A stretch of DNA of 64,000 bases, taken from Arthrobacter sp. MMS18-M83. Its GTDB lineage: Bacteria; Actinomycetota; Actinomycetes; Actinomycetales; Micrococcaceae. The notes beneath the pieces were generated by a model. That model made no database searches. It was not told the DNA's origin and saw nothing but the letters and a program-made list of their open reading frames with translations. Location: the NCBI RefSeq assembly GCF_026683955.1, contig NZ_CP113343.1, positions 2,976,001 to 3,040,000 on the forward strand, read 5' to 3'. Position numbers and translations under genes: made by a program. Shown here one piece after another: positions 20,544 to 36,921 of this stretch. Within the stretch, counting starts at the first letter, position 1. The number at the start of each line of letters is the position of its first letter.

Positions 20544-21759
20544 GGAGTTGCTCCTTGGTCTCGGTTCGCGCTGCATCTTGGGTGAGTGCCGATTTTTCGG
20601 ATAGGCGCACGCCGATGTGCTTACCCAATTCTTCAAGCAGCGGCCCTGCTTCAGCTATACATTTCTCTACATTGGATTCGAGCCCGGTCAACGCATGGAC
20701 CGACTCGAAACCGGACTCCGAAACTTGTTCCGGGCTCAGCGTACTGCGGCCGCAGACGGCAATCACAGGGATCCCGGAACGCGCCGCGGCCCGCGCCACG
20801 CCCATGGGCGTTTTGCCGAGCAGGCTCTGTTCGTCGAGGCTGCCTTCGCCGGTGATCACCAGGTCCGCGCCCGTCAGTCGCTGCTCGAGTTCGGTGAATT
20901 CGAGGACGACGTCGATGCCCGGCCTGCGTGCCGCGCCCAGCGCGGCGATGGCAATGTAGCCGACGCCGCCTGCCGCACCTGCGCCCGGAGCCTGTGCGGC
21001 GTCCTGGGCTTCGAGACCGATCTCGCTGGCGAGAACTTGCACGAAATGGGCCAAGGCCGCATCGAGCGAGGCGACATCGTCCGGCGTCGCGCCCTTCTGC
21101 GGTCCGAAGATCGCGGCGGCGCCGGTGCGGCCCAAAAGGGGATTGTCGACGTCGGACGCGAGGACGAACTCGGTGACCTCCAAGCGGACGTCCAGGTTCG
21201 AGAAGTCGATCCGGTCGAGCCGGGCGAGTGCTGCGCCGCCGCCGGGGAGTTCGTTGCCGTCGGCGTCGAGGAGGACCGCACCGAGGCCCTGCAGGACGCC
21301 GGCGCCGCCGTCGGTATTGGCGCTGCCGCCGACGCCGAGGATGATGTGCCGGCAGCCGAGGTCCAGGGCGGCGCGGATGAGTTCGCCCGTGCCCAGGCTC
21401 GTTGAGCTTTTGGCAGTTTCGGAGTTCGGGGCGCTGCCGTCGCCGAAGCCTGGCAGCATCGCGAGCCCGGAGGCCGCCGCCATTTCAATGACCGCTTCCT
21501 CGCCGCGGACCGCGAACTCTGCCCTGATCGGCTGGCCCATGGGGCCGGTGACCGTGGCGCAGCGGCGGGTGAAGCCGGAGCCGACGGCGGCGTCGAGAGT
21601 CCCTTCGCCGCCGTCGGCCACTGGAATCAGCGTGGTCTCAAAGTCCTCGCCCGGGCGGCTGGCCGCAAATCCAGCCCGCAGTCCGGTGCTCAAGCGGCTG
21701 GCGACCTCGGGGGCGGACAGCGATCCCTTGAACTTGTCCGGGGCTATGACCACACGCAT
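20536..21759 (-). CDS. glxK: Glycerate kinase (GarK/GlxK family)
   Basis: A 407-residue member of the GckA-unrelated bacterial glycerate kinase family, beginning [20 protein letters not shown] and containing [24 protein letters not shown] and [20 protein letters not shown], all hallmarks of the family. It phosphorylates glycerate made from tartronate semialdehyde by the reductase two genes upstream, delivering it to glycolysis. Its 3' end overlaps allB by eight bases. The C-terminus is about 20 residues longer than usual. Confidence 0.92.
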
Positions 21760-21781
21760 TCCGTACCTCCTTCAGTACTTA

Positions 21782-23560: not shown

Positions 23561-23691
23561 GGTGTGCTCCTTGAAAAGTCTGTTTTGCCCGCTGCGGGCG
23601 GTTTTTGGGTGTGTCTGGGGGAGCAGGCGCGTCGGAAGTGCCCGACGCCGGCTGCTGGTTTTGCTTGTTTCCGCCTTTTGGGGCGGGCGGC

Positions 23692-24570
23692 TTACTTGCG
23701 GCCGCTGAGCTGGAGGACCTGCTTGAAGAGGCCGGAGTGGTCGAGTCCGCCGTCGCCCTGGTTGACAGTGGCGGCGACGAGCTGTGCGACGACGGCGCCG
23801 AGCGGGATTGCGACGTTGGCTTCGCGGGCTGCGGAGGTGACGATACCGAGGTCCTTGTTGTGGAGGGCCAGGCGGAAGCCAGGGTCGAAGTTGCGGTCGA
23901 GCATCTTCTGGCCCTTCTGGTCGAGGACCTTGGAGCCGGCCAAGCCGCCGCCGAGGACCTTGAGGGCTGCGTCGGTGTCCACGCCGTAGGCCTCAAGGAA
24001 GGCGATGGCCTCGCCGAGGACTTCGATGTTGACGGCCACGATCAGCTGGTTGGCTGCCTTGACGGTCTGGCCGGAGCCGGAGGGGCCGACGTGGACGATC
24101 GTTTTGCCGACGGCGGTGAGGACCGGCTGGGCTGCCTCGAAGTCGGCTGCGTCGCCGCCAACCATGATCGAAAGGACGGCGTCGATGGCGCCCTGTTCGC
24201 CACCGGAAACCGGGGCGTCGAGCGGACGGATGCCGGCTGCGACGGCGTCTGCCGACAGGCGGGCTGCGACGTCCGGGCGGATGCTGCTCGCGTCGATCCA
24301 GAGGGTGCCCTTCTTCGCGTTGGCGAAGACACCGTCCGGACCGCTGACCACACCTTCGACGTCGGGGGAGTCCGGCACCATGGTGATGACGACGTCGGCG
24401 TCCTTGACGGCGTCGGCGATGTTCGTGGCACCCTTGCCGCCTTCGGAGACGAGCTTGTCGATCTTGTCCTGGCTGCGGTTGAAACCGGTGACAGTGTGGC
24501 CGGCCTTGACCAGGTTGATGGCCATGGGGAGGCCCATGATTCCGAGTCCGATAACTGCAACGTTGCTCAT
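23692..24570 (-). CDS. glxR: 2-hydroxy-3-oxopropionate (tartronate semialdehyde) reductase
   Basis: A 292-residue beta-hydroxyacid dehydrogenase. The nucleotide site is [20 protein letters not shown], the substrate motif is [11 protein letters not shown], and the catalytic Lys is in [14 protein letters not shown]. It reduces the Gcl product to glycerate. It is flanked by hyi upstream and gcl downstream, the usual order. Length and motifs are complete. Confidence 0.95.
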
Positions 24571-24672
24571 GATTTTCCTTACTGAAGTCTTTTTAGCTCA
24601 GGTGTGCTGATTGCTGGTTCGCTGGCCGCTCTGGTGAGTGCCGCCGTCGTGCGCTTGCCAACTGGGGGTTTG

Positions 24673-25476
24673 CTAGTGGGAGGTGACGCGCTGGCGGATG
24701 GCCCAGCTGAAGGCCGTTTCCCGCGGTTCCTTGTATTCGAGGCCGATGTAGCCGGCGTAGCCGAGTTCGCGGCTGCGGGCGATCCATTCGCCGAGGGGAA
24801 GCTCGCCGGTTCCGGGAGCCCCGCGGCCGGGGTTGTCGGCGATCTGGATGTGGCCGAAGTCCTTGGCGTGTTTCTCGATGACGGCTGCGACGTCGTCCCC
24901 GTTGACTGCCAGGTGGTAGAAGTCTGCGAGGAGCTTTACGTTTTCTGCGCCGGATTCTTCCTTGACGCGGGCGATCACCTTGAGGGCGTCGGCGGCCTTG
25001 AGGAGCGGGTACTTGGGGGCGCCGCTGACCGGTTCGAGGAGGACGGTGCCGCCGATGCGTGCGACGCCTTCTGCGGCGCTGGCCAGGTTTTCGGCGCCGA
25101 TGGCGTCCTGCTTCTCAGCGGATTCGCCGTCCACGCGGTTGCCGTAGAGGGCGTTGAAGGCCTTGCAGCCGAGCCGCTCGCCGATGCCTGCGACAACGTC
25201 GATGTTGTCCAGGAATTCGGAGGAGCGGGCGGGCCAGGAAACCAGCCCCCGGTCGCCGCCGGGCATGTTGCCGGCGTTGAAGTTCAGGCCGGTGAGCTGA
25301 ACGCCAGCGTCCTTGATGGCGTCCTCGAACTCGGTTATCTGGGCGTCCGACGGGACGGAGGTTTCAAAGGGCCACCAGAATTCGACGGCGTCAAAGCCGG
25401 CAGCCTTCGCGGCCGCGGGGCGCTCGAGCAGGGGCAGCTCCGTCAGGAGGATGGAGCAGTTCACTGTGTACGTCAT
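24673..25476 (-). CDS. hyi: Hydroxypyruvate isomerase
   Basis: A 267-residue TIM-barrel isomerase of the AP-endonuclease-2 family, starting MTYTVNCSILLTELPLLERP. The metal-binding Glu/His/Asp residues are suggested by FDAVEFWWPFE, LLEPVSGAPKYPL, LLADFYHLAVNGDD and HIQIADNPGRGAPGTG. It interconverts hydroxypyruvate and tartronate semialdehyde and is the first gene of the operon, so the operon promoter should lie just upstream of 25476. Confidence 0.93.
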   Translation of the reverse strand: MTYTVNCSILLTELPLLERPAAAKAAGFDAVEFWWPFETSVPSDAQITEFEDAIKDAGVQLTGLNFNAGNMPGGDRGLVSWPARSSEFLDNIDVVAGIGERLGCKAFNALYGNRVDGESAEKQDAIGAENLASAAEGVARIGGTVLLEPVSGAPKYPLLKAADALKVIARVKEESGAENVKLLADFYHLAVNGDDVAAVIEKHAKDFGHIQIADNPGRGAPGTGELPLGEWIARSRELGYAGYIGLEYKEPRETAFSWAIRQRVTSH

Positions 25477-25730
25477 CGTAGGTGTCCTTCCGGGGGAGGG
25501 CTTGGGATCTATGTTCCGCTTGGCTCTTGGTTGCTTACCTCGATCGCCTTGGCAAGTTTCCGCTTTGTGGAATTTAGATTCTGCTTTATGAAAAGTTTAG
25601 GGAAGGAGGGGGTGGGAGTCAAGGGGGTGTGGGGCGGAATGGGGTTTGGGATACCAAACACGTCCTGGAGGTCAAGCTGAGGAAGGCGCTCAATCCAAAC
25701 GTGTGCACCGGGCTTGGGTAAGGCCCCTGC

Positions 25731-25823
25731 ACCTAGACGCAACTCAGTGACCACCTATTTCGCCTCTGCTGACACCTAGATGAGGTGCGACGACCACCTA
25801 TTTTGCCTGGACTCACCACCTAG
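25731..25823. promoter_or_regulatory. Phased ACCTAG/ACCTAT operator array 1
   Basis: Five direct hexamers, ACCTAG at 25731, ACCTAT at 25753, ACCTAG at 25774, ACCTAT at 25796 and ACCTAG at 25818, are spaced 22, 21, 22 and 22 bases, i.e. two helical turns each on one face of the DNA. The preceding 250 bases back to hyi show nothing else. The last copy is about 78 bases before the small reading frame at 25901. The pattern resembles direct-repeat operators of cooperative activators such as SARP proteins; the protein that binds it is not identified. Confidence 0.75.
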
Positions 25824-25900
25824 ACGAGCATGACAGGCCTTTGGATTGCTCACGGATCGGGTACATCCAGTCCCAGTCAACCCAGCTCCAAGGAGGAATG

Positions 25901-25960
25901 ATGCGCCCCTCGAAGAAGGCGATGACTCTCGCAACCGCAGCCTTTTCTCTGGCTCTCTGA
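25901..25960 (+). CDS. Very small reading frame, truncated signal-peptide-like (19 residues)
   Basis: ATG 25901 (or 25898) follows a full AAGGAGG ribosome site and encodes MRPSKKAMTLATAAFSLAL, then TGA. The basic N-terminus and the hydrophobic stretch look like the beginning of a Sec signal peptide cut short. It may be a leader, a remnant of a secreted protein, or a coupling frame for the downstream gene at 25981. No homologue is recognised. Confidence 0.4.
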   Translation: MRPSKKAMTLATAAFSLAL

Positions 25961-25980
25961 AACCTAGAAGAGGTCTGATA

Positions 25981-26259
25981 TTGATTTACTCATCAACGGT
26001 CCGAACTATCGCAGCTGTCTCTGTGCTCGCGTGCATCGCGGGCAGCATCGTCGTCGGGCTCCATAGCGAACCGAAGACTCCTGTGCTTGCGTGGACATCC
26101 TTGGCCGCCGGTGCGGTCGCCCTGCTGGTAGTGCTCGCTACAAAACGAAGTCCGAAGCGCGATGCTGTCCTATTCATGATTTGCGGGATGTGTATCGGAA
26201 CCGTGGCGATCGTCGTGGATGCCGAGTCGGCTCAAAGCAAATCCGTCAATCGTCTCTAG
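25981..26259 (+). CDS. Small membrane protein, unknown function
   Basis: A 92-residue protein from TTG 25981, chosen because GAAGAGG lies seven bases upstream and no ATG is available before the first membrane segment. Three hydrophobic segments are seen at about residues 9-26, 35-53 and 63-81, separated by short charged loops (HSEPKT, TKRSPKRD). It sits downstream of operator array 1, sharing that motif with the RiPP operon, so an immunity or export-linked role in the cluster is possible but not shown. Confidence 0.55.
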   Translation: MIYSSTVRTIAAVSVLACIAGSIVVGLHSEPKTPVLAWTSLAAGAVALLVVLATKRSPKRDAVLFMICGMCIGTVAIVVDAESAQSKSVNRL

Positions 26260-26357: not shown

Positions 26358-26474
26358 ATCTAGGTGTAAACCGTCGATTTACACCTAGGCCCGCCTCCAG
26401 CCACACCTAGATTGGGCGATCCCACCCCTAATTCCGGTCTCCGGGCACCTAGTTTCACCCATCTCACCACCTAG
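26358..26474. promoter_or_regulatory. Phased ACCTAG operator array 2 with palindrome, upstream of the RiPP operon
   Basis: ACCTAG copies at 26383, 26405, 26447 and 26469, with a degenerate CCCTAA at 26426 filling the gap, give spacings of 22, 21, 21 and 22 bases. The first copy is also the right arm of a perfect inverted repeat, CTAGGTGTAAA (26360-26370) and TTTACACCTAG (26378-26388), with a seven-base spacer. The last copy ends about 50 bases before the first biosynthetic gene. The remaining gap 26260-26357 shows nothing recognisable. Confidence 0.78.
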
Positions 26475-26526: not shown

Positions 26527-27606
26527 ATGTCTGCGGGCCGCCCAGACGAACGCACGCAGCGGACAACTATTGGGGGTTGGGAATTGAAGCTGAGTCAGCA
26601 ACAGACCATTGCAGCAGCTGTGGACCAGTGGATTACGGGCATTCCCGGGCGAATACCAGATCATGCCATCTTCGTTGAGAACCCCGGACATGAGTCGTTT
26701 GCAAAGGAACTTGCCGGCGAGCAGTCGATCGTCCTTGTGCTTGACGGCGGCGGGGAAGATGACGCGGTCATCCCAGTCTCCGGGTTCTTCAATGTCGCAG
26801 GTGAAGAACTCTTGGTTGGTGGAACCCTCAGTCTGGAGATCCAGGACTATGTGGCCATTCCGTTCGTCAATCTCATCGGCGTCACGGTAGTCAGGATTAT
26901 CACGGCCGAAGACTGGCAGGCCTTCTTCGATGACGCAGAAGAATCCCGACGGTCGGGTTACTTCGTGCGACAGCTCACCGAAGTGAACGCCGTTCTTGCC
27001 GAGCGGGGCCTTTTGGACGGCAGCCCAGCTATCGGTTCCTCGCTGGCAAGGCTCCACATCACACGAGACGGAAGGGTACTCAGCGGACCCTACGGAACCC
27101 AGATCGGTTGGGCCGGAGACTCCTTGGCCGACATTCACAAGAGGTGCCTCGTGCTCCAACCGGAGTCTTCGCTCGCTTCTGTCTGTGACGTTGAGGTGAT
27201 TCGTAAGTCCCTTGACGCCAGGCCTTGGATTCCCCGCTATTTGGCTGCATTGGATGCCTGGAAGTTCATTCCCCAGGGCAATCGCGCAGACACCACGCTG
27301 GTCGGTTTCGGTGCCAGTCTTTACGGCGCATCGCCCACTGATGATCTCCCGTCACCACGCGCACCCTTCATCATCCACAGGGCAGGAGAGCACACGCTCC
27401 TAGACACTGCGTCCGGACGCACTTTCAGACTCGGACCTGATGCCGCCGCGATCATCGAGGCACTCTCGAATCTGCGGGATGTCAAGGCCGCTGCGTCCGC
27501 CGTGGCAGCCCCGCTGGGCATTTCCGCAGCGGTTGCCGAGGAATCCGCACGAGTGATTCTCACACAGTTCGAACAGGCAGGCGTGGACGTTTTCGGCGCC
27601 AGCTGA
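26527..27606 (+). CDS. mpaB: Daptide-type RiPP recognition protein (MpaB-like)
   Basis: A protein of up to 359 residues. The C-terminal 70 residues, from HTLLDTASGRTFRLGPDAAA to ILTQFEQAGVDVFG, have the pattern of a PqqD-like RiPP recognition element, which binds leader peptides. The larger N-terminal part has no motif I can name. In known daptide clusters a protein of this type presents the precursor to the Thr-modifying enzymes. The start is uncertain: ATG 26527 has no close ribosome site, and TTG 26584 would shorten it by 19 residues. It opens the biosynthetic operon, behind operator array 2. Confidence 0.72.
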   Translation: MSAGRPDERTQRTTIGGWELKLSQQQTIAAAVDQWITGIPGRIPDHAIFVENPGHESFAKELAGEQSIVLVLDGGGEDDAVIPVSGFFNVAGEELLVGGTLSLEIQDYVAIPFVNLIGVTVVRIITAEDWQAFFDDAEESRRSGYFVRQLTEVNAVLAERGLLDGSPAIGSSLARLHITRDGRVLSGPYGTQIGWAGDSLADIHKRCLVLQPESSLASVCDVEVIRKSLDARPWIPRYLAALDAWKFIPQGNRADTTLVGFGASLYGASPTDDLPSPRAPFIIHRAGEHTLLDTASGRTFRLGPDAAAIIEALSNLRDVKAAASAVAAPLGISAAVAEESARVILTQFEQAGVDVFGAS

Positions 27607-27660
27607 ATTCCGAACCTTCATTTTGCCGGCCACCCGTCGAACTCAAAGGACTAACAACCG

Positions 27661-28950
27661 ATGACTGCAGCACCCGACCGTGCCACACCCAGCACCCAAC
27701 TCCCGCTCTGGATTCCCCTGATTGCGCAGCACGATTTCCCTGTCGCGACCTACACCGCTGTCAGCGCCCGCGGCGTCCACGTAGCTTTTGAAGACGGTCG
27801 ACGCCGCCTTTGCGCAAAGAGTGGACTGTGGAACGCCAACCTCGGTTACGGCAACCCACGTATCGCCGAGGCAATCGCTACGGAACTTGAAGCTGCATCC
27901 TACCTTCCGTTGTTCAGGACGGCGCATCGCAAAGCAATCGAGGCGGCCAACGCACTGCTCTCACTCCCTGCCCACCGCTTTCAACGGGTGGTCTTCTCCA
28001 CCTCCGGGGGAGCTGCCAACGACGCCGGCATGAAGCTCGCGCGCCAATACTTCGTCCTGGACGGACAACCCGAGCGAAAAATCATCGTGGGCCTGACCGG
28101 CAGCTATCACGGGCTCACCTACGGGAGCCAGGCCCTCAGCGGTGACGACCTCGGTCAGGCTGTCTATGGTGTCGACCGGCGCAATATCCGACACATCAGA
28201 TTCGATGACGGGGGCGCGGAACTGGCGCAATTGATGCTCAGGGAAGGGCGCAGGGTCGCCGCGGTCATCGTCGAACCGGTCCTCGGGTCCGGTGCTGACG
28301 TTGTGCCGGAAAGCTTCCTGGACTCATTGTTGAAACTCCGGGAGGAGCACGGCTTTCTGGTTGTCGCGGACGAGGTGGCCACCGGATTCGGGCGGGTGAA
28401 CTCCTGGTTCGTTTCTGATGAGTGGCCGTCGGCTCCGGACGTCATCGTGACGTCGAAGGCGATGACGAACGGCACCAGCGCGTGCGCCGCACCTCTGGTC
28501 GGAGCGCGGGTAACGGAGAAGTTCGATTCCACGGAATCTGTCTTTGTCCATGGAGAGACGCAAGCAGGAACTCCGGCCACGTGCGCCGCCATTCTTTCGA
28601 CCATCGACGAAATGAAAAGGCTGGATCATGGCAGCCTCACAGCGGCAGTCTCGGCCGGACTCGATGATCTCATCGGCCGACTCCAATGCATTCCCGGCGT
28701 CGGTACGGCCACCGGTCGGGGCTGCATGCGGGCCATCAAGCTGGAGATAGCGGACGGATTGCCATTGTCACCGAGCGGTGTCTTGGCCGTCGTCAGACGT
28801 ATTCACGAGGCCGGAGCGATCGTGCAGCCCGGCCCAAGCAGGATCCAGCTCCTGCCGGCCTTGGTATTCACGAAGGAAAACTTTGAGGAACTCCACGCGG
28901 CCATCGCAGGGGGGCTCAGCGCAGCCCGCCGGGACGGGGTCTTCACGTGA
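27661..28950 (+). CDS. mpaD: Class III PLP aminotransferase of the daptide pathway (MpaD-like)
   Basis: A 429-residue aminotransferase class III enzyme. Visible motifs are VFSTSGGAANDAGMKLARQY, GLTGSYHGLTYGSQ, VVADEVATGFGR with the cofactor Asp, and TSKAMTNG with the PLP lysine (about Lys266). In daptide biosynthesis this enzyme aminates the C-terminal ketone made by oxidative decarboxylation of Thr. Its stop overlaps the dehydrogenase start by four bases (GTGA). Assignment to the daptide role rests on the full gene neighbourhood. Confidence 0.8.
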   Translation: MTAAPDRATPSTQLPLWIPLIAQHDFPVATYTAVSARGVHVAFEDGRRRLCAKSGLWNANLGYGNPRIAEAIATELEAASYLPLFRTAHRKAIEAANALLSLPAHRFQRVVFSTSGGAANDAGMKLARQYFVLDGQPERKIIVGLTGSYHGLTYGSQALSGDDLGQAVYGVDRRNIRHIRFDDGGAELAQLMLREGRRVAAVIVEPVLGSGADVVPESFLDSLLKLREEHGFLVVADEVATGFGRVNSWFVSDEWPSAPDVIVTSKAMTNGTSACAAPLVGARVTEKFDSTESVFVHGETQAGTPATCAAILSTIDEMKRLDHGSLTAAVSAGLDDLIGRLQCIPGVGTATGRGCMRAIKLEIADGLPLSPSGVLAVVRRIHEAGAIVQPGPSRIQLLPALVFTKENFEELHAAIAGGLSAARRDGVFT

Positions 28951-30161
28951 TCGCAGACCGGACCTGGAAGACCCGCTGCGTCGTTGTCGATGGGGAGCTG
29001 CCTGCCAATTACCTCGGCACACTGATTCGTGGACGGGCCGGACTCGTGGTGGACAGTGCGCTCACCGAGCACCGAGATCGGCTCTTGGACGGCGGCCTCA
29101 ACGGAGCGCCCGTCTTGGAACTCGACGCCCGACCCGTGTCATTCGCGACCCTGGCGGTTGTTGCCGACTTCACTCGAGCACACGGTCTCGAGACCGTTGT
29201 GGCACTCGGCGGCGGCTCCGTCCTTGACGCGGTGAAACTCTCTGCCCTGTTCTTCGCCGATCCGTGCTTCGCTGAATTTGCGGCGCGCCATGCCAAGCGA
29301 TCGGGCCTCGTCGTCATACCTTTCGGGACCGAACCAAACGAGCGCCCTAGAACCATCCTGATGCCGTCCACTGTGGGGACCGGCGCCGAAGTCAGCGCTG
29401 TAGCATGCCTGGACACCGACGTCGGACGCCACCTGATCGCCTCACCGCACCTGTCGGGTGACATAGCGGTGCTCGACGCCGCACATTTCGCGAGCCTCCC
29501 CGGGACCCTTGTGTTCGAAGGGCTGCTCGAAGCGTTTCTCCGGGTGGCCGGAACGATGATCGGCAGCAGCCGGAGCACTTTCGACGACGACGCGCTCTCA
29601 CTTCTGGCGCGGATCGTGCGGCTGGGGCATCGCCTGCAGCACGAAGATTCCGCTGAGCTGCGGCTTGCTGCAGCCCGGCTCAGCATGGAAACCCACACCG
29701 GATGGTCGCTCATGGCTCGAAACCCTTACGGGGCGAAGCACTGGTATGTCGCGAACGAATTGGCATACCTGACAGGCGAGAGAAAGATGACCGCAACTGC
29801 CACCGTCATCGGGCCCATATGGGATGAGATCGAAAACGGCGCCCCGGCCTGGGGCAACCCTCATCGTTTGTCCGAACTATGGTCCGTGGTGGCAGAAATT
29901 GACCCTTCGCTCGGCCGCTCTGCCGCTTCCGGCATCAGGGAGTTGCTGCACCAATGGGGCGTCCAAGGGCTCGATGACCTGAGCGAACAAACTGCCGTGA
30001 AAACAGCCAAATCGGCGGTCGGCCGCTGGGGTGGAGTGCTGCCCATGCTGCGTGGCATTGACCACGCGCAAATCCAGCACATTCTCCTGAAATCAGTCAA
30101 GAAACAGCCAGTCTTGCCAGGCCCATTGGGCGACCAACGAGCGGCAAGGGAGAGGGGGTGA
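28947..30161 (+). CDS. mpaC: Iron-type alcohol dehydrogenase of the daptide pathway (MpaC-like)
   Basis: A 404-residue Fe-ADH-superfamily protein starting at GTG 28947. The nucleotide motif is VVALGGGSVLDAVKLSA and the second is MPSTVGTGAEVSAVACL; METHTGWSLMARNPYGAKHW carries His residues in the metal-binding half, though the usual HG(x)2H pattern is altered. In daptide clusters the homologue performs oxidative decarboxylation of the invariant C-terminal Thr of the precursor. It ends five bases before the first precursor gene. Confidence 0.78.
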   Translation: MIADRTWKTRCVVVDGELPANYLGTLIRGRAGLVVDSALTEHRDRLLDGGLNGAPVLELDARPVSFATLAVVADFTRAHGLETVVALGGGSVLDAVKLSALFFADPCFAEFAARHAKRSGLVVIPFGTEPNERPRTILMPSTVGTGAEVSAVACLDTDVGRHLIASPHLSGDIAVLDAAHFASLPGTLVFEGLLEAFLRVAGTMIGSSRSTFDDDALSLLARIVRLGHRLQHEDSAELRLAAARLSMETHTGWSLMARNPYGAKHWYVANELAYLTGERKMTATATVIGPIWDEIENGAPAWGNPHRLSELWSVVAEIDPSLGRSAASGIRELLHQWGVQGLDDLSEQTAVKTAKSAVGRWGGVLPMLRGIDHAQIQHILLKSVKKQPVLPGPLGDQRAARERG

Positions 30162-30165
30162 GCAT

Positions 30166-30309
30166 ATGAACAACACCGTCGCGCCAAGGCTTCTGGATCT
30201 CGAAATCCAGGAGCTGGAAAGCATCGAAGTTCCGGACGACTGGAGCGAACGTATCCACGGAATCACCGTAGGGCTTGCTTTGGTCGGAATCGCCGTCACC
30301 ATCACGTGA
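30166..30309 (+). CDS. Daptide-type precursor peptide A1
   Basis: A 47-residue peptide from ATG 30166 behind GGGAGAGGGGGTG. The leader contains LDLEIQELESIEVPDD; the C-terminal half is hydrophobic (ITVGLALVGIAVTIT) and ends in Thr, the residue converted to a dimethylated diamine in daptides. The leader block LxIxELExxxxPDD is shared with the two following peptides. It lies directly between the dehydrogenase and A2. Confidence 0.82.
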   Translation: MNNTVAPRLLDLEIQELESIEVPDDWSERIHGITVGLALVGIAVTIT

Positions 30310-30360
30310 CGAGAAGCCGACCGAAAGACCAGTCGATCGACACAGGGGGAGGTGAAAGCG

Positions 30361-30486
30361 ATGCAGGAACAGCTCAATATCTCAATCCAGGAAATTGAGT
30401 CCATGGATACACCGGACTTCAACAATTGGTTCATTGGCGTGTCCCAAGGGGTGGCTATCGGCATCATTGCCGTCAGCATCACCTAG
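30361..30486 (+). CDS. Daptide-type precursor peptide A2
   Basis: A 41-residue peptide from ATG 30361 with GGGGAGG nine bases upstream; GTG 30352 is an in-frame alternative. The leader is NISIQEIESMDTPD, followed by a hydrophobic core (GVSQGVAIGIIAVSIT) with C-terminal Thr. It is the shortest of the three, and its leader matches A3 most closely (DTPD). Confidence 0.82.
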   Translation: MQEQLNISIQEIESMDTPDFNNWFIGVSQGVAIGIIAVSIT

Positions 30487-30536
30487 GCGGAAGCCCGGCC
30501 GACTGTCCAAGAACAAGACGATCGAGAGGAGGGGCA

Positions 30537-30674
30537 ATGATCGCAACATCAAACCTTCAGCTGACCATTGAAGAACTGGAGAACCTCGATACACCTGACG
30601 ACACACCGTGGTACATCCGCGTTGGTGACGTCATCATTATCGCCGGCATCGTCGTCGGCATCGCTGCGACCTAG
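30537..30674 (+). CDS. Daptide-type precursor peptide A3
   Basis: A 45-residue peptide from ATG 30537 with GAGGAGGGG just upstream. The leader reads LQLTIEELENLDTPDD and the core GDVIIIAGIVVGIAAT ends in Thr. Each precursor has its own ribosome site and the three are 51 and 50 bases apart, as expected for tandem duplicates. A strong stem-loop follows at 30683. Confidence 0.82.
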   Translation: MIATSNLQLTIEELENLDTPDDTPWYIRVGDVIIIAGIVVGIAAT

Positions 30675-30682
30675 CAAGTGCG

Positions 30683-30717
30683 CGCGGGTGGGGAAGCGCT
30701 AGCGTTCGCCACCCGCG
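30683..30717 (+). terminator. Intercistronic stem-loop after the precursor genes
   Basis: Arms CGCGGGTGG (30683-30691) and CCACCCGCG (30709-30717) enclose a loop with an AGCGCT palindrome. No run of T follows, so it is more likely a partial attenuator or mRNA-stabilising hairpin that keeps precursor transcripts in excess over the downstream enzymes. Confidence 0.55.
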
Positions 30718-30759
30718 TGTACTCCCCTCCCCACGTCTGACTCCCGAGAGTACGAGTTG

Positions 30760-31584
30760 ATGAGAACCGCAACTGACAAGACTGCTGCCGACATCCTGCG
30801 CGCCATTGGCCACGGGAGTCCTCCTGGGGATCTGTACGGCATTGAAGGGTCCCGCCTTTACGACAGGCTGACTTCTGACGATCTGTCCGAGCTTCCCGAG
30901 ATTCTTGGCGCTGTTCGGAAAACAGCAGGACCCATCCTCGAATTAGCGGCGGGGTCCGGCAGGATTACCCGGGCGCTTCTGGCTCTGGGGCGTCCCCTGA
31001 CAGCCGTTGACTCTTCGCCGGAAATGCTGGAAATGCTCAGGCAAAGGGCTGCGACCCGGTCCTTTAATCCTCGGGGAGTCGCAGTGGAACTCGTCGAGGC
31101 GGACATGTCCCAACTGCCTGTTGGCGGCAAGTACGGCTGCGTCGTACTGGGTGCCAGCTCAGTGACTCTTCTGACTCATGACCAGCGACGAGCGCTCTTC
31201 GGCCGGGTCCGCGATTCCCTGGCCCCTGAATCCCGCTTGGTGCTCACAGTCCTCGATGCCGACTTATCTGACCAGTCGCCGGACCATGACGAGGGCTCGA
31301 TTACTGGATTCTCGGTGCTCGACGCCAACTCCATCCTCTTCAATATTGAGCGCCGGGATCCGGATGGCGGAGCGAGGCACGTGACCATGATCAAGATCGA
31401 TTTCGATGAGGGAAAGTCATACCGGACGGCCGCCTATGTCAGCGATGTGGCTTACGTCCGGAACGAGGTTATTGAAGCCGAGCTCTCCGCTGAGGGCTTG
31501 CATGTTCTCGAAAGAGGAGCTGTCCGGATCGCCTCGCCGGTCCCTTCCCTTAACAAGGTTGAGATGTGGGTATGCGGCAAATAA
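30760..31584 (+). CDS. mpaM: Daptide-type SAM-dependent methyltransferase (MpaM-like)
   Basis: A 274-residue class I methyltransferase. The SAM site is PILELAAGSGRITRALLALG, the acidic motif is TAVDSSPEML, and the motif IV region is GCVVLGASSVTLL. In the daptide pathway this enzyme dimethylates the new C-terminal amine. ATG 30760 is used; TTG 30757 precedes it. Its stop TAA overlaps the ATG of the next gene (TAATG). Confidence 0.78.
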   Translation: MRTATDKTAADILRAIGHGSPPGDLYGIEGSRLYDRLTSDDLSELPEILGAVRKTAGPILELAAGSGRITRALLALGRPLTAVDSSPEMLEMLRQRAATRSFNPRGVAVELVEADMSQLPVGGKYGCVVLGASSVTLLTHDQRRALFGRVRDSLAPESRLVLTVLDADLSDQSPDHDEGSITGFSVLDANSILFNIERRDPDGGARHVTMIKIDFDEGKSYRTAAYVSDVAYVRNEVIEAELSAEGLHVLERGAVRIASPVPSLNKVEMWVCGK

Positions 31585-32828
31585 TGATCGACCCCGCACG
31601 GACCTTGGATCCCTCCCTCGGCCTGGTTTCTGATGCGCAGGTCTACGTCCCGAATGAGGTTGGTCTATGGCGCACGGTGGCGTATTTGGCCAACGCCCCG
31701 TGGGACGGGGAACATCCCAGGCTTTCTTCCGCTGTCGGAGCATTCGACGTCAACAGGCGATCCTCGGTGACCAGGGGATCCGGCGAGGCGGTAGAGCGCT
31801 TCGCGCTCGTTCCAGTGCCGGCCGATTCGGAACACCTCCTTGTGACCAACCCTTCCCACGAAAGGAGGATCGATTTCGTGGAAGCAGGACTAGGGCACCC
31901 CTCGGCCCTTGGCCTTGAGTTCCCGTGGTATCGGGCGACGGACCTGGTTTCCGGGACTGAGTCACATGTTCCAGCCGGTGTTGTGGACTACAACCCCGGC
32001 GAATTCCCGGAAGAAGGTCTTGCTGGTCAGTTCTTCGATCCATCTCCCAACGGAGCCGCCGCCGGACCCTCGGAACACTTCGCCATGACTTCCGCCGTGG
32101 CTGAAGTCATTTAGCGTGATGCCTTCTTGTGGGCTTGGCACAACAGGACACAGCTCAAGAAAATCATCATCGAAGACTTGCCAGCAGAACTGTCTGGTAA
32201 TCCGGACACTCGTAGTCTCACGCGGCTCTTCAGAACCGCCCTCGACTCCGGTATCCACGCCAATCTTGCTTTTGTCCCCAACGACGACGGGCCATTGGAA
32301 ATCGCGGTCAGCGTCATCATCGGTGACACGAAGCATGGACAGTTCGGTGCGGTCGGAATCAAGGCTTCCGCAGACCCCATTTCGGCATTGAAGGGCGCCC
32401 TCCAGGAAGGGCTTCAAATCCGTGAACTCCTCCTGTCCAGATCGCCGTCCCCGGTTACAAGCCACGAAGCGGTGACAAACGACGAGTCGAGAGCGGACTT
32501 CTGGATGACGCGCCCAGCAATCGATGAACTTAGCGCATGGGTGCAGTCGTTCTCGAAGGCGCCACTGCCTCGTGCCCACCCCCAACCCGACGTGGACGAC
32601 TTGGTGCAGCATCTGGCTCGGAAAGGAATCACTTCGCACTGGGTAAGCCTCACCCACAGGCTTCCTGCGGCGATACAAGAGATCGGCTGGGAAGCGGGCA
32701 AGGCAATCTGTCCGGGTGCGTTCCCACTCACCATGGACGAATCCAAGCGACTGTCCTTGGTGCCGAACAGCTTTGACGGCCCGCCACGTCGGAACGCTTT
32801 CGCTTCAACACCACATCCGTTGATATGA
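31584..32828 (+). pseudogene. YcaO-family protein interrupted by an in-frame amber codon
   Basis: Two reading frames in the same register form one YcaO domain of 414 codons, split by TAG at 32112-32114 (codon 177). The upstream part has SSVTRGSGEAVERFALVPVP; at the break the text is SAVAEVI-stop-RDAFLWAWHNR, where YcaO proteins read EVIERDAF. So one GAG to TAG change removes the metal/ATP-binding Glu itself. The downstream part continues with IAVSVIIGDTKHGQFGAVG and SALKGALQEGLQIREL. No second lesion is seen, so the loss is recent or the codon is suppressed. No E1-like or TfuA partner is present. The start may be ATG 31572 instead. Confidence 0.85.
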
Positions 32829-34525
32829 GCCCCTACAGGAACGGCGAAACGGTGACAGGACCTTCCCACGCTCGAACTCCGATTCAATGGCCCGCACAGC
32901 TGGCTCCAACTGCGTCGATTGACGAGCCCCTACAGGCCGGCGGGCCATGGATCGTGGCTCTGAACGGTGTGCCAAAAGCCAGGGTCTCTGCGGACGTGGC
33001 CAATGTGCTCAAAGTTTTGGACGGCAAAAAGGAACCTGCCCAAGTGGCTCACCACCTTGGCAGTCCATGGACTGCGGAGGACGTCATGGGGGTCGCTCGC
33101 CAGTTAGTCCACACGGGTGTCTTCGATGTGACGGCAAACCAGGCGGAAACTCGGCGAGTCCAGTTCCGCGCGCCCCTCACCCTGCAGGTTACGTTGTTCA
33201 AGCCCGCGCCGCTCCTCAACTTCTTCCGCCCGGCGGTTGCCGCCATGGCCCGTCCCGGGTTCATCGCTGCGGCGGGTGTTCTCGTCGTCGGCGGCATCAT
33301 CGGCGCTTTCATGGCGGGCCCAAACGTTTGGCGGGTATTGGCAACGCCACTTCCCTTGGAGGCCTATATTCACGTCGCCATCGCGATGTTCGCCTCCACT
33401 TTGCTGCACGAGCTCGGTCATGGAATGGCGCTCGCCTATTTCGGTGGCATGCCCAGACGTATCGGAATCATGATCTTTTATCTGGCCCCAGCGTTCTTTT
33501 GCGACGTGACGGACGGCTGGCGACTCAGTTCGCCCAAACAAAGGGTGCTGGTCGCGCTGGCCGGACCCTTCGTTCACCTCGGCCTTGGGAGCATTGCGCT
33601 TGTGGTTCAGGGCATTCTTCCGGCGACGTCCCTGAAAGACGCCGCCATCCTCTACGGAATCATTTGCTACGCAATAGCCGTCTTGAACCTCTTTCCGTTC
33701 ATCAAGCTGGATGGCTACGTCGCGTTGATGTCAGCTGTGGATATTCCGCACCTACGTCGAAAATCCATCGCCGCATTGTCAGACGCGGTCAGCTCTAGGT
33801 TTCTTGGTTCACGTATCAACACGGGCAGCCAAGGTCTCCTAGCCTGGTTCGGCTTTGCAAGCTTCGTGTCAGGCATCGCTTTCATGGTCATTGGTTTCCA
33901 AAGATTTGCGCCCATCGTCCTGCAACTCGGCTTCGCGGGACACATAGTGGTCCTCGTTGTCCTTGGCCTTTTGCTTGTGTTGGCCCTCAAGGGAATCATC
34001 CAGTTTTTCCATTCGGCCTCAAAGAGCGGCAGCCCGACGTGGCGGCGGATTGGTTTCTTGCTACTCGGAACGGCTGTCGCGGCGGGACTCCTCATCGTGA
34101 TTCCGATCAGGTCTGTCGTCGTGGCCGGTTACACCTACATCAACGGAGAACTAAAGATCGTGACCCCCATCGAATCGACCGCTCAAGCGATCGTCCCGGG
34201 AGACAGGGTGACTTTGAAGTCCCAAGGAATGGTGGTTCATGAAGAACTGGCACAAGCCACCATCGGCACAGAACCGCCGTCGAATTCGATTGCACCTGTG
34301 GAAACCATCGTCCCGGTGACGTTTCCGGGCACGAATGTCCCTGTGCGGGCGTACCCGGGACGCCTTGAAGGTTCGGTCTACCTCCCGGTCTCGGGACGAG
34401 CCGAGGTGACGAGCCACAGGGAGATGCGGCTGTGGGAGTGGCTCTGGGATGCCGCCTCGAATTCTCCGCTATGGCCAGGGAACTTCGGACAACCCACCAA
34501 AGTCTCGACGGAAGGGCAACAGTGA
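32825..34525 (+). CDS. mpaP: Daptide-type membrane metalloprotease, M50 family (MpaP-like)
   Basis: A 566-residue intramembrane protease. The zinc site is STLLHELGHGMALAYFGGMP (first His about 195) with the distal ligand in NLFPFIKLDGY (about 286-296). About ten hydrophobic segments follow and precede it. The N-terminal 100 residues (ALNGVPKARVSADVANVLKV onwards) resemble a PqqD/RRE-like fold, which could hold the leader peptide. A C-terminal soluble stretch after the last membrane helix resembles a secretion-adaptor beta domain. The start overlaps the YcaO stop (ATGA) and the stop overlaps the ATPase start (GTGA). It is expected to remove the leader. Confidence 0.78.
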   Translation: MSPYRNGETVTGPSHARTPIQWPAQLAPTASIDEPLQAGGPWIVALNGVPKARVSADVANVLKVLDGKKEPAQVAHHLGSPWTAEDVMGVARQLVHTGVFDVTANQAETRRVQFRAPLTLQVTLFKPAPLLNFFRPAVAAMARPGFIAAAGVLVVGGIIGAFMAGPNVWRVLATPLPLEAYIHVAIAMFASTLLHELGHGMALAYFGGMPRRIGIMIFYLAPAFFCDVTDGWRLSSPKQRVLVALAGPFVHLGLGSIALVVQGILPATSLKDAAILYGIICYAIAVLNLFPFIKLDGYVALMSAVDIPHLRRKSIAALSDAVSSRFLGSRINTGSQGLLAWFGFASFVSGIAFMVIGFQRFAPIVLQLGFAGHIVVLVVLGLLLVLALKGIIQFFHSASKSGSPTWRRIGFLLLGTAVAAGLLIVIPIRSVVVAGYTYINGELKIVTPIESTAQAIVPGDRVTLKSQGMVVHEELAQATIGTEPPSNSIAPVETIVPVTFPGTNVPVRAYPGRLEGSVYLPVSGRAEVTSHREMRLWEWLWDAASNSPLWPGNFGQPTKVSTEGQQ

Positions 34526-35232
34526 AAATCCATGCCAGCTTTGACGGGTTCAGCAAGAAACGAGGCACAAGTTTCGCCGTCGAAGACTTGACGTTCGATG
34601 TACCCGCCGGGCGAATCGTCGGACTGATAGGACCCAATGGCGCCGGAAAGAGCACGGCCCTGGCTGGCTTGACCGGCCTGTTGGAGGCGACGTCCGGGCG
34701 TGCCACGGTCTTTGGAACTGACTACCGGACCCTGCACAGGCCCGTCACCAAAGTAGGGGTAAACCTGGACGGAATGGACGTCGAGCCTGGGCTCACCGGC
34801 CGGCGTCACCTGCAGATCTGTCGGTTTGCTGCCGGGACCCCGCCCGAGAGCGTCGATCGTGTCCTGGAACTGGTCGATTTGACCGCCCAAGCGAACAAGA
34901 AGGTCCGGGACTACTCCCTCGGGATGAGGCAGCGTCTGGGCATCGCCTCGGCAATCATCGGTGGCCCCAAGCTCCTGGTCCTCGACGAACCGGCCAACGG
35001 GCTCGACCCGGATGGCATTCAATGGCTGCGATCGTTCCTCAGGGACTTCGCCAAGTCCGGGGGAAGCGTGCTGATCTCCAGCCATCAGCTGACGGAGCTG
35101 GAACAGATAGCCGACGACGTTGTCATCCTGAAGCGGCGGATGTTGTTCCGTGGGTCCGTTGAGGACGCCACTGCCGTTGGTGGCGGGAACCTGGAAGCTG
35201 CATATTTCAGGATTCTGGAGGGAGCCCGATGA
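34522..35232 (+). CDS. ABC exporter ATP-binding protein of the RiPP cluster
   Basis: A 236-residue drug/peptide-exporter-type ATPase. Walker A is GLIGPNGAGKSTALAGL, the signature region is DYSLGMRQRLGIASAIIGGP, Walker B is LLVLDEPANGLDPDGI, and the switch His is in ISSHQL. GTG 34522, with GGAAGGG upstream and a four-base overlap with the protease gene, is the best start. Together with the two following membrane proteins it probably exports the mature peptide and may give immunity. Confidence 0.85.
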   Translation: MKIHASFDGFSKKRGTSFAVEDLTFDVPAGRIVGLIGPNGAGKSTALAGLTGLLEATSGRATVFGTDYRTLHRPVTKVGVNLDGMDVEPGLTGRRHLQICRFAAGTPPESVDRVLELVDLTAQANKKVRDYSLGMRQRLGIASAIIGGPKLLVLDEPANGLDPDGIQWLRSFLRDFAKSGGSVLISSHQLTELEQIADDVVILKRRMLFRGSVEDATAVGGGNLEAAYFRILEGAR

Positions 35233-35978
35233 ACTACGAAGTCAATGCGGCTTTCGCCGGCGGGCTCCGGTCCGAGCTGCTGAGATACTTCAGCGGCTAC
35301 TCCGTCCTCGGCATCCTGGCCTTCAGTGGACTGGTGCCTTGGTTCGTGGCGAATTTCCTGGGCTGGCCCGATCATGCGGACAAGCTCTCATCGGCCCAAA
35401 ACGTCGAGACGTTTTGGGCCCTCGCCACGACGATCGCAATCGTTGCCACTTTCGCAGGAAGCTACCTCGTAACCCGGGAAGCCTACTTCGGGACTCTTCG
35501 ACGAAGCGTTGCCATCTCCGGGATGAGTCAACTTGTGAAGACCAAATACGCAGCCTCGCTGGTTGTCGGTCTTTTCACGGCAACTTCAGGCCTGGCTCTC
35601 TGGAGCGGCAGTACCGCGCTCGCAGTGTCCCCGGAAGTGCGCACTGAACTTGTGGAAGGCGCCTCCTGGCAAGCTTTGCTCGGCGTCGTCGTCGCCTCAG
35701 TTGCCGGGTGCTTGTGGGGTTGTTCGCTCGGCTGGATCATCAGGCACTACTACGCAACCACGATCGCCACCATGCTGATTCCCCTCGCTTTGGAACTCCC
35801 CCTTATGGCGAACTTTCCTGAAATTGCCCGATGGCTGCCGTCGGGAGCCTTGGCAGGGATCGCAAACCTGCCGATTGAGGGCCTGTTCGGACCGCTCCAC
35901 GCATGCCCGGTCTCTCTGGGATGGCTGATTGCCGGAGGAGCAGGCGCGATGTGGGTGCTGCGGAGAAGGGGGGTCTAG
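35229..35978 (+). CDS. ABC exporter membrane subunit 1
   Basis: A 249-residue integral membrane protein with about six hydrophobic segments, in the ABC-2 style (GYSVLGILAFSGLVPWFVAN; GVVVASVAGCLWGCSLGWII). It overlaps the ATPase by four bases (ATGA) and is followed directly by the second membrane subunit, with which it has weak family resemblance (both have an LWG(C/F)xxGxxIR(H/N) loop). Family-level assignment only; no catalytic motif is expected. Confidence 0.75.
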   Translation: MNYEVNAAFAGGLRSELLRYFSGYSVLGILAFSGLVPWFVANFLGWPDHADKLSSAQNVETFWALATTIAIVATFAGSYLVTREAYFGTLRRSVAISGMSQLVKTKYAASLVVGLFTATSGLALWSGSTALAVSPEVRTELVEGASWQALLGVVVASVAGCLWGCSLGWIIRHYYATTIATMLIPLALELPLMANFPEIARWLPSGALAGIANLPIEGLFGPLHACPVSLGWLIAGGAGAMWVLRRRGV

Positions 35979-36695
35979 TTGGACAACTATGCACCTGCCT
36001 TCCTTTCGGACATGCAGCGCCCGTGGCTGTGGAAAGGATCAGCCGTCTGCGCCTTGCTTGTGGCTGGTCTGATCGGTGCACTTGTGGTGGCCGCGGCAAT
36101 CAGTTCAAAAGAAGACGGCGGGCAGGCGATGACAGGCGTGGATCGAACTCTCTTGGAAGCCGGCTTGTCGCTGATGCTCACGGCAGCGGCCGTGGTGGGT
36201 TCCTTCTCATTCACGTCGGACTTTGACACGAGATCGTTTCATCGACGCATCTTGATGTTCCAGCGTGGAGCGGCATTCACCGGACGGGCGGCCTCCATCA
36301 CAGTCGCTGCACTCGTGACGGGCGCAATCGTAGGGGTGCTTTTCGGGCTATCAGGGGAACTGGTGGCAAACCTGTGGCATGTCAGCGCCCCCGCCGTGCT
36401 GGCTTTCGCCGCGATGGCCGGAATCGGTTCGCTCTGGGGTTTCGCGATCGGTTCCCTCATCCGCAACCATTTTCTGAGCCTCTTTGTTGTACCGCTGAGC
36501 CTTGTTCTGCCGGCAGCTCTCGCCAGCCGGCTCGGACAAATTGCCGATCTTCTCTTCCCGAACATGGTCACGGATTGGGTGAACCAATGGGCGTTGGGAA
36601 GCGTGAAGCTCGATTCCTTTGCAGGGGCAGTTATCTGGCTTGCCTGCTCGCTCGGCGGGGCATATTGGGTGTTTTTAAAGCGCGACCTGACTTAA
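35979..36695 (+). CDS. ABC exporter membrane subunit 2
   Basis: A 238-residue membrane protein with about six hydrophobic segments starting at TTG 35979, immediately after the TAG of subunit 1; GGAGAAGGGGGG supplies the ribosome site. The loop SLWGFAIGSLIRNHFLSLFV parallels subunit 1. A 236-residue ATPase plus two roughly 240-residue membrane proteins form a complete heteromeric exporter. It ends the coupled operon. Confidence 0.75.
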   Translation: MDNYAPAFLSDMQRPWLWKGSAVCALLVAGLIGALVVAAAISSKEDGGQAMTGVDRTLLEAGLSLMLTAAAVVGSFSFTSDFDTRSFHRRILMFQRGAAFTGRAASITVAALVTGAIVGVLFGLSGELVANLWHVSAPAVLAFAAMAGIGSLWGFAIGSLIRNHFLSLFVVPLSLVLPAALASRLGQIADLLFPNMVTDWVNQWALGSVKLDSFAGAVIWLACSLGGAYWVFLKRDLT

Positions 36696-36723
36696 CCATT
36701 TACCGTTCATTAGGGAATTTACT

Positions 36724-36921
36724 GTGAAGCGTAACCAGACCATTTGGCTTCTATTGACTCTTATTTTTGGTTTCTACTCCATCTACATCTTTTCCTCCGC
36801 AAGCGGGGACTCATTGTGGGCCATCGTTTCCGGAATGGTTCTCGTAGCCGCTTCACTGGCTTCGCTTTGGAAATTCCTGCGCGGTGTCAAGGCATCAAAG
36901 AACCACAGAAGCGGCGAGTGA
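36724..36921 (+). CDS. Small two-helix membrane protein at the end of the RiPP cluster
   Basis: A 65-residue protein from GTG 36724, 28 bases after the exporter operon. It has a basic start (MKRNQ), hydrophobic segments at about 7-24 and 32-50, and a basic tail (KFLRGVKASKNHRSGE). Small cationic membrane proteins at the end of bacteriocin-like clusters are often immunity factors, but no family is recognised. Its 3' part overlaps the antisense reading frame at 36783-37124; the AT-rich leader before it supports this strand. Confidence 0.55.
   Translation: MKRNQTIWLLLTLIFGFYSIYIFSSASGDSLWAIVSGMVLVAASLASLWKFLRGVKASKNHRSGE

What the first reader, a model, noticed from the sequence alone, without database searches (positions are those of the whole stretch)
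26527..36921. A complete daptide-type RiPP biosynthetic cluster
Seen directly: in one strand and mostly with overlapping start/stop codons, there are an RRE-like protein, a class III aminotransferase, an iron-type alcohol dehydrogenase, three short peptides ending in Thr, a class I methyltransferase, an M50-type protease and an ABC exporter. Known: daptides (mpaA-D, M and P genes) carry a C-terminal Thr converted by oxidative decarboxylation, transamination and dimethylation into a diamine, giving peptides with two amino ends. Inference: this strain makes up to three such membrane-active peptides. The YcaO gene makes this version different from the minimal set.
Basis: partly seen in the sequence, partly recalled or inferred. 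Interest (0 to 1): 0.88.

Follow-up and report, generated by a model that had tools for sequence, protein, structure and literature searches.

The report
Daptide operon in an antagonism regulon
A soil Arthrobacter carries the genes for daptides, small peptides whose tail end is turned into an amine, and the same DNA control tags that sit before these genes also sit before other competition peptides in it and its relatives, which points to one master regulator.

Summary
The operon at window 26584-36921 is a daptide gene cluster: DapB, C, D, M, P and all three precursors pass NCBIfam daptide cut-offs. Two corrections. The YcaO gene (dapY) is interrupted by an in-frame TAG at 32112-32114; 27 of 27 relatives in which both halves were found have an open frame. 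YcaO daptides are already published: DapY makes a C-terminal imidazoline (PMC12338566). So this strain should make the simple dimethyl-diamine (Dmp) forms.

New here: the operon starts behind CACCTAG heptamers phased by 21-22 bp. In this genome such arrays also precede a circular-bacteriocin operon, an SdpB locus broken by insertion elements, and the gene of a large LuxR-type (LAL) regulator. Among 198 genomes of the genus, 38 of 38 with true arrays carry the regulator; 1 of 148 without it matches the pattern, spuriously. In a clade of 10 genomes the arrays read CAC[GT][GT]AG, and the regulator's recognition helix changes from ENH to ESH in 10 of 10. Best reading: one LAL regulator controls daptides together with unrelated competition weapons. 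Regulation, product and activity are inferred, not shown.

The parts
25730..25823 (+). second heptamer array: CACCTAG/CACCTAT at 25730, 25752, 25773, 25795, 25817 (22/21/22/22 bp), ahead of short ORFs
26360..26474 (+). dap promoter array: CACCTAG at 26382, 26404, 26446, 26468, a degenerate site between, and one inverted copy at 26360
   Evidence: 25 of 26 relatives have at least one exact heptamer upstream of dapB, 24 of 26 at least two
26584..27606 (+). dapB, accessory protein with C-terminal RRE; start TTG 26584 proposed (listed ORF begins 26527)
   Evidence: NF041823 207.9 bits, cut-off 150; PqqD domain; start
27661..28950 (+). dapD, class III aminotransferase
   Evidence: NF041821 547.1 bits, cut-off 450
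28947..30161 (+). dapC, Fe-ADH-family oxidative decarboxylase
   Evidence: NF041822 330.9 bits, cut-off 300
30166..30309 (+). dapA1 precursor, 47 aa, leader ELESIEVP, predicted core 24 aa ending in Thr
   Evidence: NF041808 28.8 bits, cut-off 25; sequence
30361..30486 (+). dapA2 precursor, 41 aa, leader EIESMDTP, predicted core 23 aa ending in Thr
   Evidence: NF041808 34.9 bits, cut-off 25
30537..30674 (+). dapA3 precursor, 45 aa, leader ELENLDTP, predicted core 25 aa ending in Thr
   Evidence: NF041808 51.9 bits, cut-off 25
30760..31584 (+). dapM, SAM methyltransferase
   Evidence: NF041820 233.6 bits, cut-off 175
31572..32828 (+). dapY, YcaO-family gene, interrupted by in-frame TAG at 32112-32114
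   Evidence: PF02624 on both pieces, 34.8 and 39.6 bits, cut-off 25.7; open frame in 27 of 27 relatives where both pieces were found; start ATG 31572 by homology to P0001
32825..34525 (+). dapP, RRE-type M50 intramembrane protease
   Evidence: NF041824 363.2 bits, cut-off 300
34522..35232 (+). dapT1, ABC transporter ATPase
   Evidence: PF00005 92.7 bits
35229..35978 (+). dapT2, presumed permease
   Evidence: no family hit; matched in 24 of 26 relatives
35979..36695 (+). dapT3, presumed permease
   Evidence: no family hit; matched in 24 of 26 relatives
36724..36921 (+). 65-aa hydrophobic protein at the operon end; candidate immunity protein
   Evidence: matched in 26 of 26 relatives, three of them only at E 0.003-0.004; kept behind an array at the same site in four genomes that lack the daptide core genes there

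Best explanation
This is a daptide operon that should make three Dmp-capped peptides, and it is one target of a shared antagonism regulon. DapB holds the leader (ELExxxxx) and presents the C-terminal Thr to DapC, which oxidises and decarboxylates it; DapD transaminates the ketone and DapM dimethylates the amine; DapP cuts after ELExxxxx and the DapT proteins export the peptide. In relatives with intact dapY, DapY could divert the monomethyl intermediate to an imidazoline (Diz), as published for Streptomyces azureus; here dapY is broken, so all three should end as Dmp. Transcription is proposed to be switched on by a LAL-type LuxR regulator (G000:C1:1775756-1778317) whose GerE domain reads CACCTAG heptamers spaced by two helical turns. 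The same regulator would act on its own promoter, a circular-bacteriocin operon and an SdpB locus in this genome, and on ESX/TNT, SdpABC-type and other operons in relatives. The 65-aa protein probably gives self-protection. Shown by sequence: gene families, the stop codon, the arrays, their co-occurrence and co-variation with the regulator. Inferred: enzyme order (from published homologues), product, binding, activation and immunity.
For: Family scores. Chemistry from PMC10036551 and PMC12338566. dapY stop; only one YcaO match in the genome. Of 82 arrays in 61 loci, 79 with room to tell: 71 have a same-strand gene start within 400 bp downstream, 18 a divergent gene start within 400 bp; 1 of 82 lies inside an ORF over 100 aa (simple home-made gene caller). 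Regulator and array: 38 of 38 array genomes have the LAL; 1 of 148 LAL-free genus genomes matches the pair pattern, a 7-bp tandem repeat in G010; family draw, 1 of 235 LAL-free genomes. 29 of 29 genomes with a strong dapB match (E below 1e-30) have the LAL. Heptamers in the 300 bp upstream of 49 of 50 best LAL genes, two or more in 47. Operator switch: 10 of 10 LAL-positive genomes of one clade have CACKKAG arrays and ESH; 38 of 38 CACCTAG genomes have ENH. Of 8 differences fixed between that clade and its four sisters, N826S is the only one at a site invariant in the remaining orthologues, G005 set aside. The circular-bacteriocin operon (G044, G053) and the dap operon of G078 carry the switched heptamers. 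The SdpB gene behind an array in this genome passes its model (197.9 bits, cut-off 178.4).
Against: No expression, binding or mass data. The switch is one event on the tree (clade support 0.87), so the 10 genomes are not independent. G110 (ENH) and G005 (ETH) have the LAL but no CACCTAG pair. Three paralogues of the LAL examined (47-48% identity) also read ENH but have one, none and none of the heptamers upstream, and LAL relatives at 46-50% identity in 6 genomes of another genus lack CACCTAG pairs, so the helix alone does not predict the array. This genome's own LAL promoter mixes CACCTAG with one CACGGAG. The loci were chosen by the pattern, which fixes the 21-23 bp spacing by construction; only the 42-45 bp multiples are free of that. 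Some first genes behind arrays are not obvious weapons, for example an MFS transporter. The stop in dapY could be an assembly error; reads were not available.
Confidence: 0.72

Rival explanations
1. Ordinary YcaO daptide cluster: the TAG is an assembly error or is tolerated, DapY works and some peptides end as the imidazoline Diz, as azuritides do.
For: 27 of 27 relatives with both dapY pieces have an open frame; the two pieces have dN/dS 0.30 and 0.28 against the nearest relative, other genes of the operon 0.00-0.30, and no second lesion.
Against: The assembly is near complete in 2 contigs, and a recent lesion would look the same. I saw no start with a clear ribosome site behind the stop (sequence).
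Confidence: 0.15
2. The heptamers are read by a different regulator (a SARP, a response regulator) that is merely inherited together with the LAL.
For: Streptomyces SARP-type regulators bind heptameric direct repeats, classically at 11-bp period (PMC5930380, passages). Co-occurrence alone cannot separate linked genes.
Against: The LAL gene carries the array in its own promoter and its recognition helix changes with the heptamer. Among the 40 gene clusters whose sequences I looked at no other regulator stood out; this was not a systematic search.
Confidence: 0.15
3. The operon is decaying and makes nothing: dapY is already lost and its stop uncouples translation of dapP, whose start overlaps the end of dapY.
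For: dapY stop; dapP ATG 32825 overlaps the dapY end; some relatives give no match to the exporter (L054, L060) or to most of the cluster (L076; L145, L147, L153, L156).
Against: All other dap genes are open, with dN/dS 0.00-0.30 against the nearest relative; the arrays are intact.
Confidence: 0.12

Closest known systems
Daptide cluster mpa of Microbacterium paraoxydans DSM 15019 (PMC10036551)
   Same: BCDMP enzymes, three precursors ending in Thr, ELE-type leader, ABC transporter genes
   Different: here a (broken) YcaO gene, a conserved 65-aa end gene, and a heptamer-array promoter; whether mpa has such an array was not tested
Daptide clusters with DapY of Streptomyces azureus and Thermobifida fusca (PMC12338566)
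   Same: daptide core plus a YcaO gene; relatives' DapY ends in PHPLI (27 of 27), as do Streptomyces, Kitasatospora, Frankia and Microbacterium homologues
   Different: dapY is interrupted here; 25 of 27 relatives lack the first Pro of the PxPxP ending that the paper reports for TfDapY and SaDapY. Those two sequences were not at hand, so membership of their group was not tested
SARP-LAL regulator PimR and its operators, Streptomyces natalensis (PMC5930380)
   Same: heptameric direct repeats in a target promoter; large ATPase-type regulator
   Different: PimR binds through a SARP domain at 11-bp period and lacks the LuxR HTH; here a C-terminal GerE domain is the proposed reader, at 22-bp period, and targets lie at scattered loci
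AS-48-like circular bacteriocin of Arthrobacter sp. APC 3897 (PMC10456417)
   Same: circular bacteriocin genes with a DUF95 protein in Arthrobacter
   Different: no shared regulator or operator in the 12 of 28 passages shown to me

Membership tests
Daptides | DUF-RRE protein, Fe-ADH, aminotransferase, methyltransferase and RRE-M50 protease encoded together | tested here: met
   all five above NCBIfam equivalog cut-offs
Daptides | precursors with ELExxxxx leader and invariant C-terminal Thr | tested here: met
   three of three end in Thr; A2 has EIE in place of ELE
Daptides | C-terminal Thr converted to Dmp in the product | not testable with these tools
   masses predicted for LC-MS
YcaO (Diz-forming) daptides | intact DapY | tested here: not met
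   in-frame TAG at 32112-32114
LAL-type LuxR regulators | large protein with N-terminal ATPase and C-terminal GerE HTH | tested here: met
   GerE 33.7 bits, cut-off 23.5, residues 793-843; ATPase part weak in this protein (AAA_16 18.1 bits under its cut-off), AAA_22 30.9 over 27 in an orthologue
LAL-type LuxR regulators | binds the heptamer array | tested here: inconclusive
   co-occurrence and recognition-helix co-variation only
Circular bacteriocin, uberolysin type (second target) | Bacteriocin_IId precursor with SpoIIM/DUF95 protein | tested here: inconclusive
   PF09221 26.4 bits over 23.6; TIGR03651 23.6 under 30.7; SpoIIM 21.0 under 26.9
SdpABC-type system (third target) | SdpA, SdpB and SdpC genes together | tested here: inconclusive
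   this genome: SdpB 197.9 over 178.4, no SdpA or SdpC identified in the stretch, IS3 and IS21 transposases between array and SdpB; relatives: SdpA 107.6 over 53.1, SdpB 207.0 over 178.4, SdpC-family 76.8 under 99.2

The most novel reading that the evidence does not exclude
A single autoregulated LAL regulator runs an antagonism regulon in Arthrobacter/Paenarthrobacter (daptides, circular bacteriocins, SdpABC-type toxins, ESX with TNT toxins and orphan immunity proteins) through two-turn-phased heptamer arrays, and in one clade the whole regulon changed operator from CACCTAG to CAC[GT][GT]AG together with one residue (N826S) in the recognition helix.
Probability: 0.7. Interest if true: 0.78.

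Novelty: new variant of a known kind. Interest (0 to 1): 0.62.

Why it matters
It would place daptides, whose natural role is not established, inside a coordinated set of competition weapons, and it gives a simple sequence tag for finding further unrecognised peptides and immunity genes in these soil bacteria. The natural operator switch offers a clean case of a transcription factor and its regulon changing specificity together, with a named residue to test. The broken dapY beside 27 relatives with an open frame is a natural comparison for the published Dmp/Diz branch point.

Tried and rejected
RNA families and tRNAs: none in window 20000-42000 and in the window respectively. A second YcaO in the genome that could stand in for DapY: none found. 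DapY of a relative as single sequence against solved structures: no hit; the profile finds MJ1094, TruD, MusD, YcaO and LynD. Split two-piece YcaO enzyme: thought unlikely, because the 27 relatives examined have one frame. A precursor-like hit in L156 (A3, E 0.028) was dropped as chance. The paired octamer with up to 3 mismatches gave 30 places against 83 for the backward control; of the 7 places with 1-2 mismatches 6 lie in the three arrays and one (C1:3204516) was not pursued; the 23 with 3 mismatches were dropped. The three-copy pattern CACNNAG matches 41 of 198 genomes, 30 LAL-positive and 11 LAL-free; none of the 11 has three CACCTAG or CACKKAG heptamers, and two LAL-positive matches (G166, G173) are not such heptamers either (my count). 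G010 was dropped from the array set because its match is a 7-bp tandem repeat. Seven weaker dapB matches (G002, G026, G038, G044, G061, G137, G157) were left out of the 29; five of the seven are LAL-free. The divergent daptide-like loci L064-L066 gave no YcaO match and no CACCTAG in the 450 bp upstream of dapB.

Literature: searches for a CACCTAG site or a LuxR/LAL bacteriocin regulon in Arthrobacter, Paenarthrobacter or Micrococcaceae showed none in the listings; subscription papers are not held. Papers seen: PMC10036551 (outline with abstract, passages, section 6), PMC12338566 (outline with abstract, passages, section 10), PMC5930380 and PMC10456417 (passages); all others as search listings only.
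Full report
WHAT IS THERE. Reading and ORF lists show one + strand operon. NCBIfam names it clearly: NF041823 daptide RRE protein, NF041821 aminotransferase, NF041822 dehydrogenase, NF041820 methyltransferase and NF041824 protease pass their equivalog cut-offs, and all three short peptides pass the daptide_123 precursor model (not the narrower MpaA1-A3 models). The window lies in a 5.1-Mb genome of 2 contigs; the nearest named relative found is Arthrobacter sp. MI7-26 (dehydrogenase 96%). The probable dapB start is TTG 26584: 26 of 26 relatives have a start codon at residues 18-22 of the listed ORF (26584 is residue 20), and in 7 of 26 an in-frame stop lies at residues 5-19.

DAPY IS INTERRUPTED. 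Two Pfam YcaO pieces in one frame are separated by a TAG at 32112-32114, codon 183 of a 420-codon frame counted from 31566, within the YcaO domain and a conserved block. The frame between the matched pieces is open in 27 of 27 distinct relatives: 26 loci of the genus scan plus L069. One deletion derivative (L076) and three divergent daptide-like loci (L064-L066) gave no dapY match. It is the only YcaO match in the genome. dN/dS of the pieces (0.30, 0.28) is like the other genes (0.00-0.30), so the lesion is recent or is an assembly error. Published work (PMC12338566, section 10) has the monomethyl intermediate go either to Diz by DapY or to Dmp by DapM. Without DapY the expected ends are Dmp. 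The stop may also weaken translational coupling to dapP, whose start overlaps the dapY end (inference).

THE PROMOTER ARRAY. Upstream of dapB lie CACCTAG heptamers at 26382, 26404, 26446 and 26468 (22, 42, 22 bp), with a degenerate copy in the gap and one inverted copy at 26360. Of 26 fetched relatives 25 have at least one exact heptamer there and 24 at least two; spacings are 22 bp (21 of 45), 43 (15), 44 (4), 65 (3), 42 and 21 (1 each). The exception, G078, has CACGGAG and CACGTAG at this place. A second array stands at 25730-25823 in the window.

A REGULON. In the whole genome the exact pair pattern occurs at two loci only: dap and C1:1771431. The latter precedes a precursor with the Pfam circular-bacteriocin domain (PF09221 26.4 bits, cut-off 23.6; the NCBIfam model is missed, 23.6 against 30.7), a SpoIIM-like protein below cut-off and a transporter. 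The three-copy scan adds the promoter of the LAL gene next door and C1:1794610. Behind the latter lies an unidentified c11-like gene, then IS3 and IS21 transposase genes, then an SdpB gene (197.9 bits, cut-off 178.4). In relatives the first genes within 400 bp of arrays include the LAL itself (15), c11 (6, in three loci followed by SdpC-, SdpA- and SdpB-like genes), a WXG100-like gene (5; Pfam 25.2 under 27.3) followed by ESAT6_3 (140.9 over 100) and TNT-domain proteins (44.0 over 27), an MFS transporter (4), circular bacteriocins (3), I36-inhibitor/ABC sets (3), dapM-like genes (3) and small membrane proteins. Representatives, not all members, were annotated. Of 79 arrays with room to tell, 71 have a same-strand gene start within 400 bp; 18 have a divergent start within 400 bp.

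THE REGULATOR. The LAL (854 aa, GerE at residues 793-843) is present in 50 of 198 genus genomes at E up to 1e-40. Of 39 genomes with the pair pattern one, G010, is a 7-bp tandem repeat; the other 38 are all LAL-positive. Of 148 LAL-free genomes only G010 matches (Fisher p about 5e-29 with G010 counted against; relatedness makes this too optimistic). The backward control pattern, by contrast, is scattered over LAL-positive and LAL-free genomes. 29 of 29 genomes with a strong dapB match are LAL-positive. In a family draw of 245 genomes the pattern occurs in 5: four LAL-positive of this genus and one LAL-free; 6 LAL-positive genomes of another genus (46-50% identity) have none.

THE OPERATOR SWITCH. 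Twelve LAL-positive genomes lack CACCTAG pairs. Ten of them (G012, G042, G044, G050, G053, G064, G078, G106, G131, G161) carry arrays of CAC[GT][GT]AG: 50 of the 52 three-copy matches listed for them, overlapping ones counted apart, consist only of such heptamers (my count). Their LAL recognition helix reads RTVESH in 10 of 10; the 38 CACCTAG genomes read RTVENH in 38 of 38; G110 (ENH) and G005 (ETH) have no pair; three paralogues read ENH with few or no heptamers upstream. The ten form one clade (support 0.87); of 8 differences fixed from its four sisters only N826S falls at a site invariant in the remaining orthologues, G005 set aside. The circular-bacteriocin operon in G044 and G053 carries the switched heptamers. 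That residue sits in the helix which, from recall of NarL/LuxR-type structures, reads the major groove; solved relatives by sequence include EsrB, GerE and VraR domains.

THE END GENE. The 65-aa protein is matched at the operon end in 26 of 26 relatives, three of them weakly. In 23 of these 26 a gamma-glutamyltransferase gene lies beside it (family); in L038, L039 and L059 it was not found in the stretch, and in the window the next gene is an MctP permease. Beside the same gene, four genomes keep an array with a dapM-like methyltransferase plus this protein (G196, G038, G111) or the protein alone (G096), and no match to the other daptide enzymes in the fetched stretches. G038 has a divergent dapB match elsewhere. 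Keeping a weapon's last gene without the weapon suggests orphan immunity (inference).

VERDICT. Daptide cluster: firm. Dmp-only product: likely. Control by a LAL regulator within a wider antagonism regulon: likely, not found described in the listings searched, and the most interesting part.

Noticed in passing
window 25730-25823 and 25846-26259: A five-heptamer array ahead of short ORFs (a 20-aa frame and a small hydrophobic protein); the pair pattern is not listed at this place in the nearest relative, G147.
   Followed up: partly
L240 (G000:C1:1794000-1801500): Array-preceded locus with IS3 and IS21 transposase genes ahead of an SdpB gene; probably an Sdp-type system broken by insertions. 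Described only.
   Followed up: partly
L145, L147, L153, L156: Methyltransferase and/or 65-aa protein behind an array at the dap site in genomes without the other daptide enzymes there; candidate orphan immunity.
   Followed up: partly
L135, L159, L164, L166: Array-preceded WXG100-like, ESAT6-like and polymorphic-toxin genes (TNT domain shown for L159): type VII secretion cargo apparently in the same regulon.
   Followed up: partly
L064, L065, L066: Divergent daptide-like loci (dapB 26-27%, aminotransferase 47-50%) without YcaO match and without heptamers upstream of dapB.
   Followed up: no
P0054-P0057: Shorter DapY relatives (236-307 aa); two look frame-shifted at the end by eye. Loss of dapY may recur.
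   Followed up: no
L054, L060: Daptide operons with no match to the three transporter genes that keep the 65-aa protein.
   Followed up: no
L242, L253: Array-preceded operons with an ABC transporter and two unidentified proteins (about 312 and 334-340 aa) that could be another peptide system; L245 and L252 show the transporter part.
   Followed up: no
window 21125-25680: + strand ORFs (954, 201, 358 aa) directly upstream without any NCBIfam hit at E up to 0.01.
   Followed up: no
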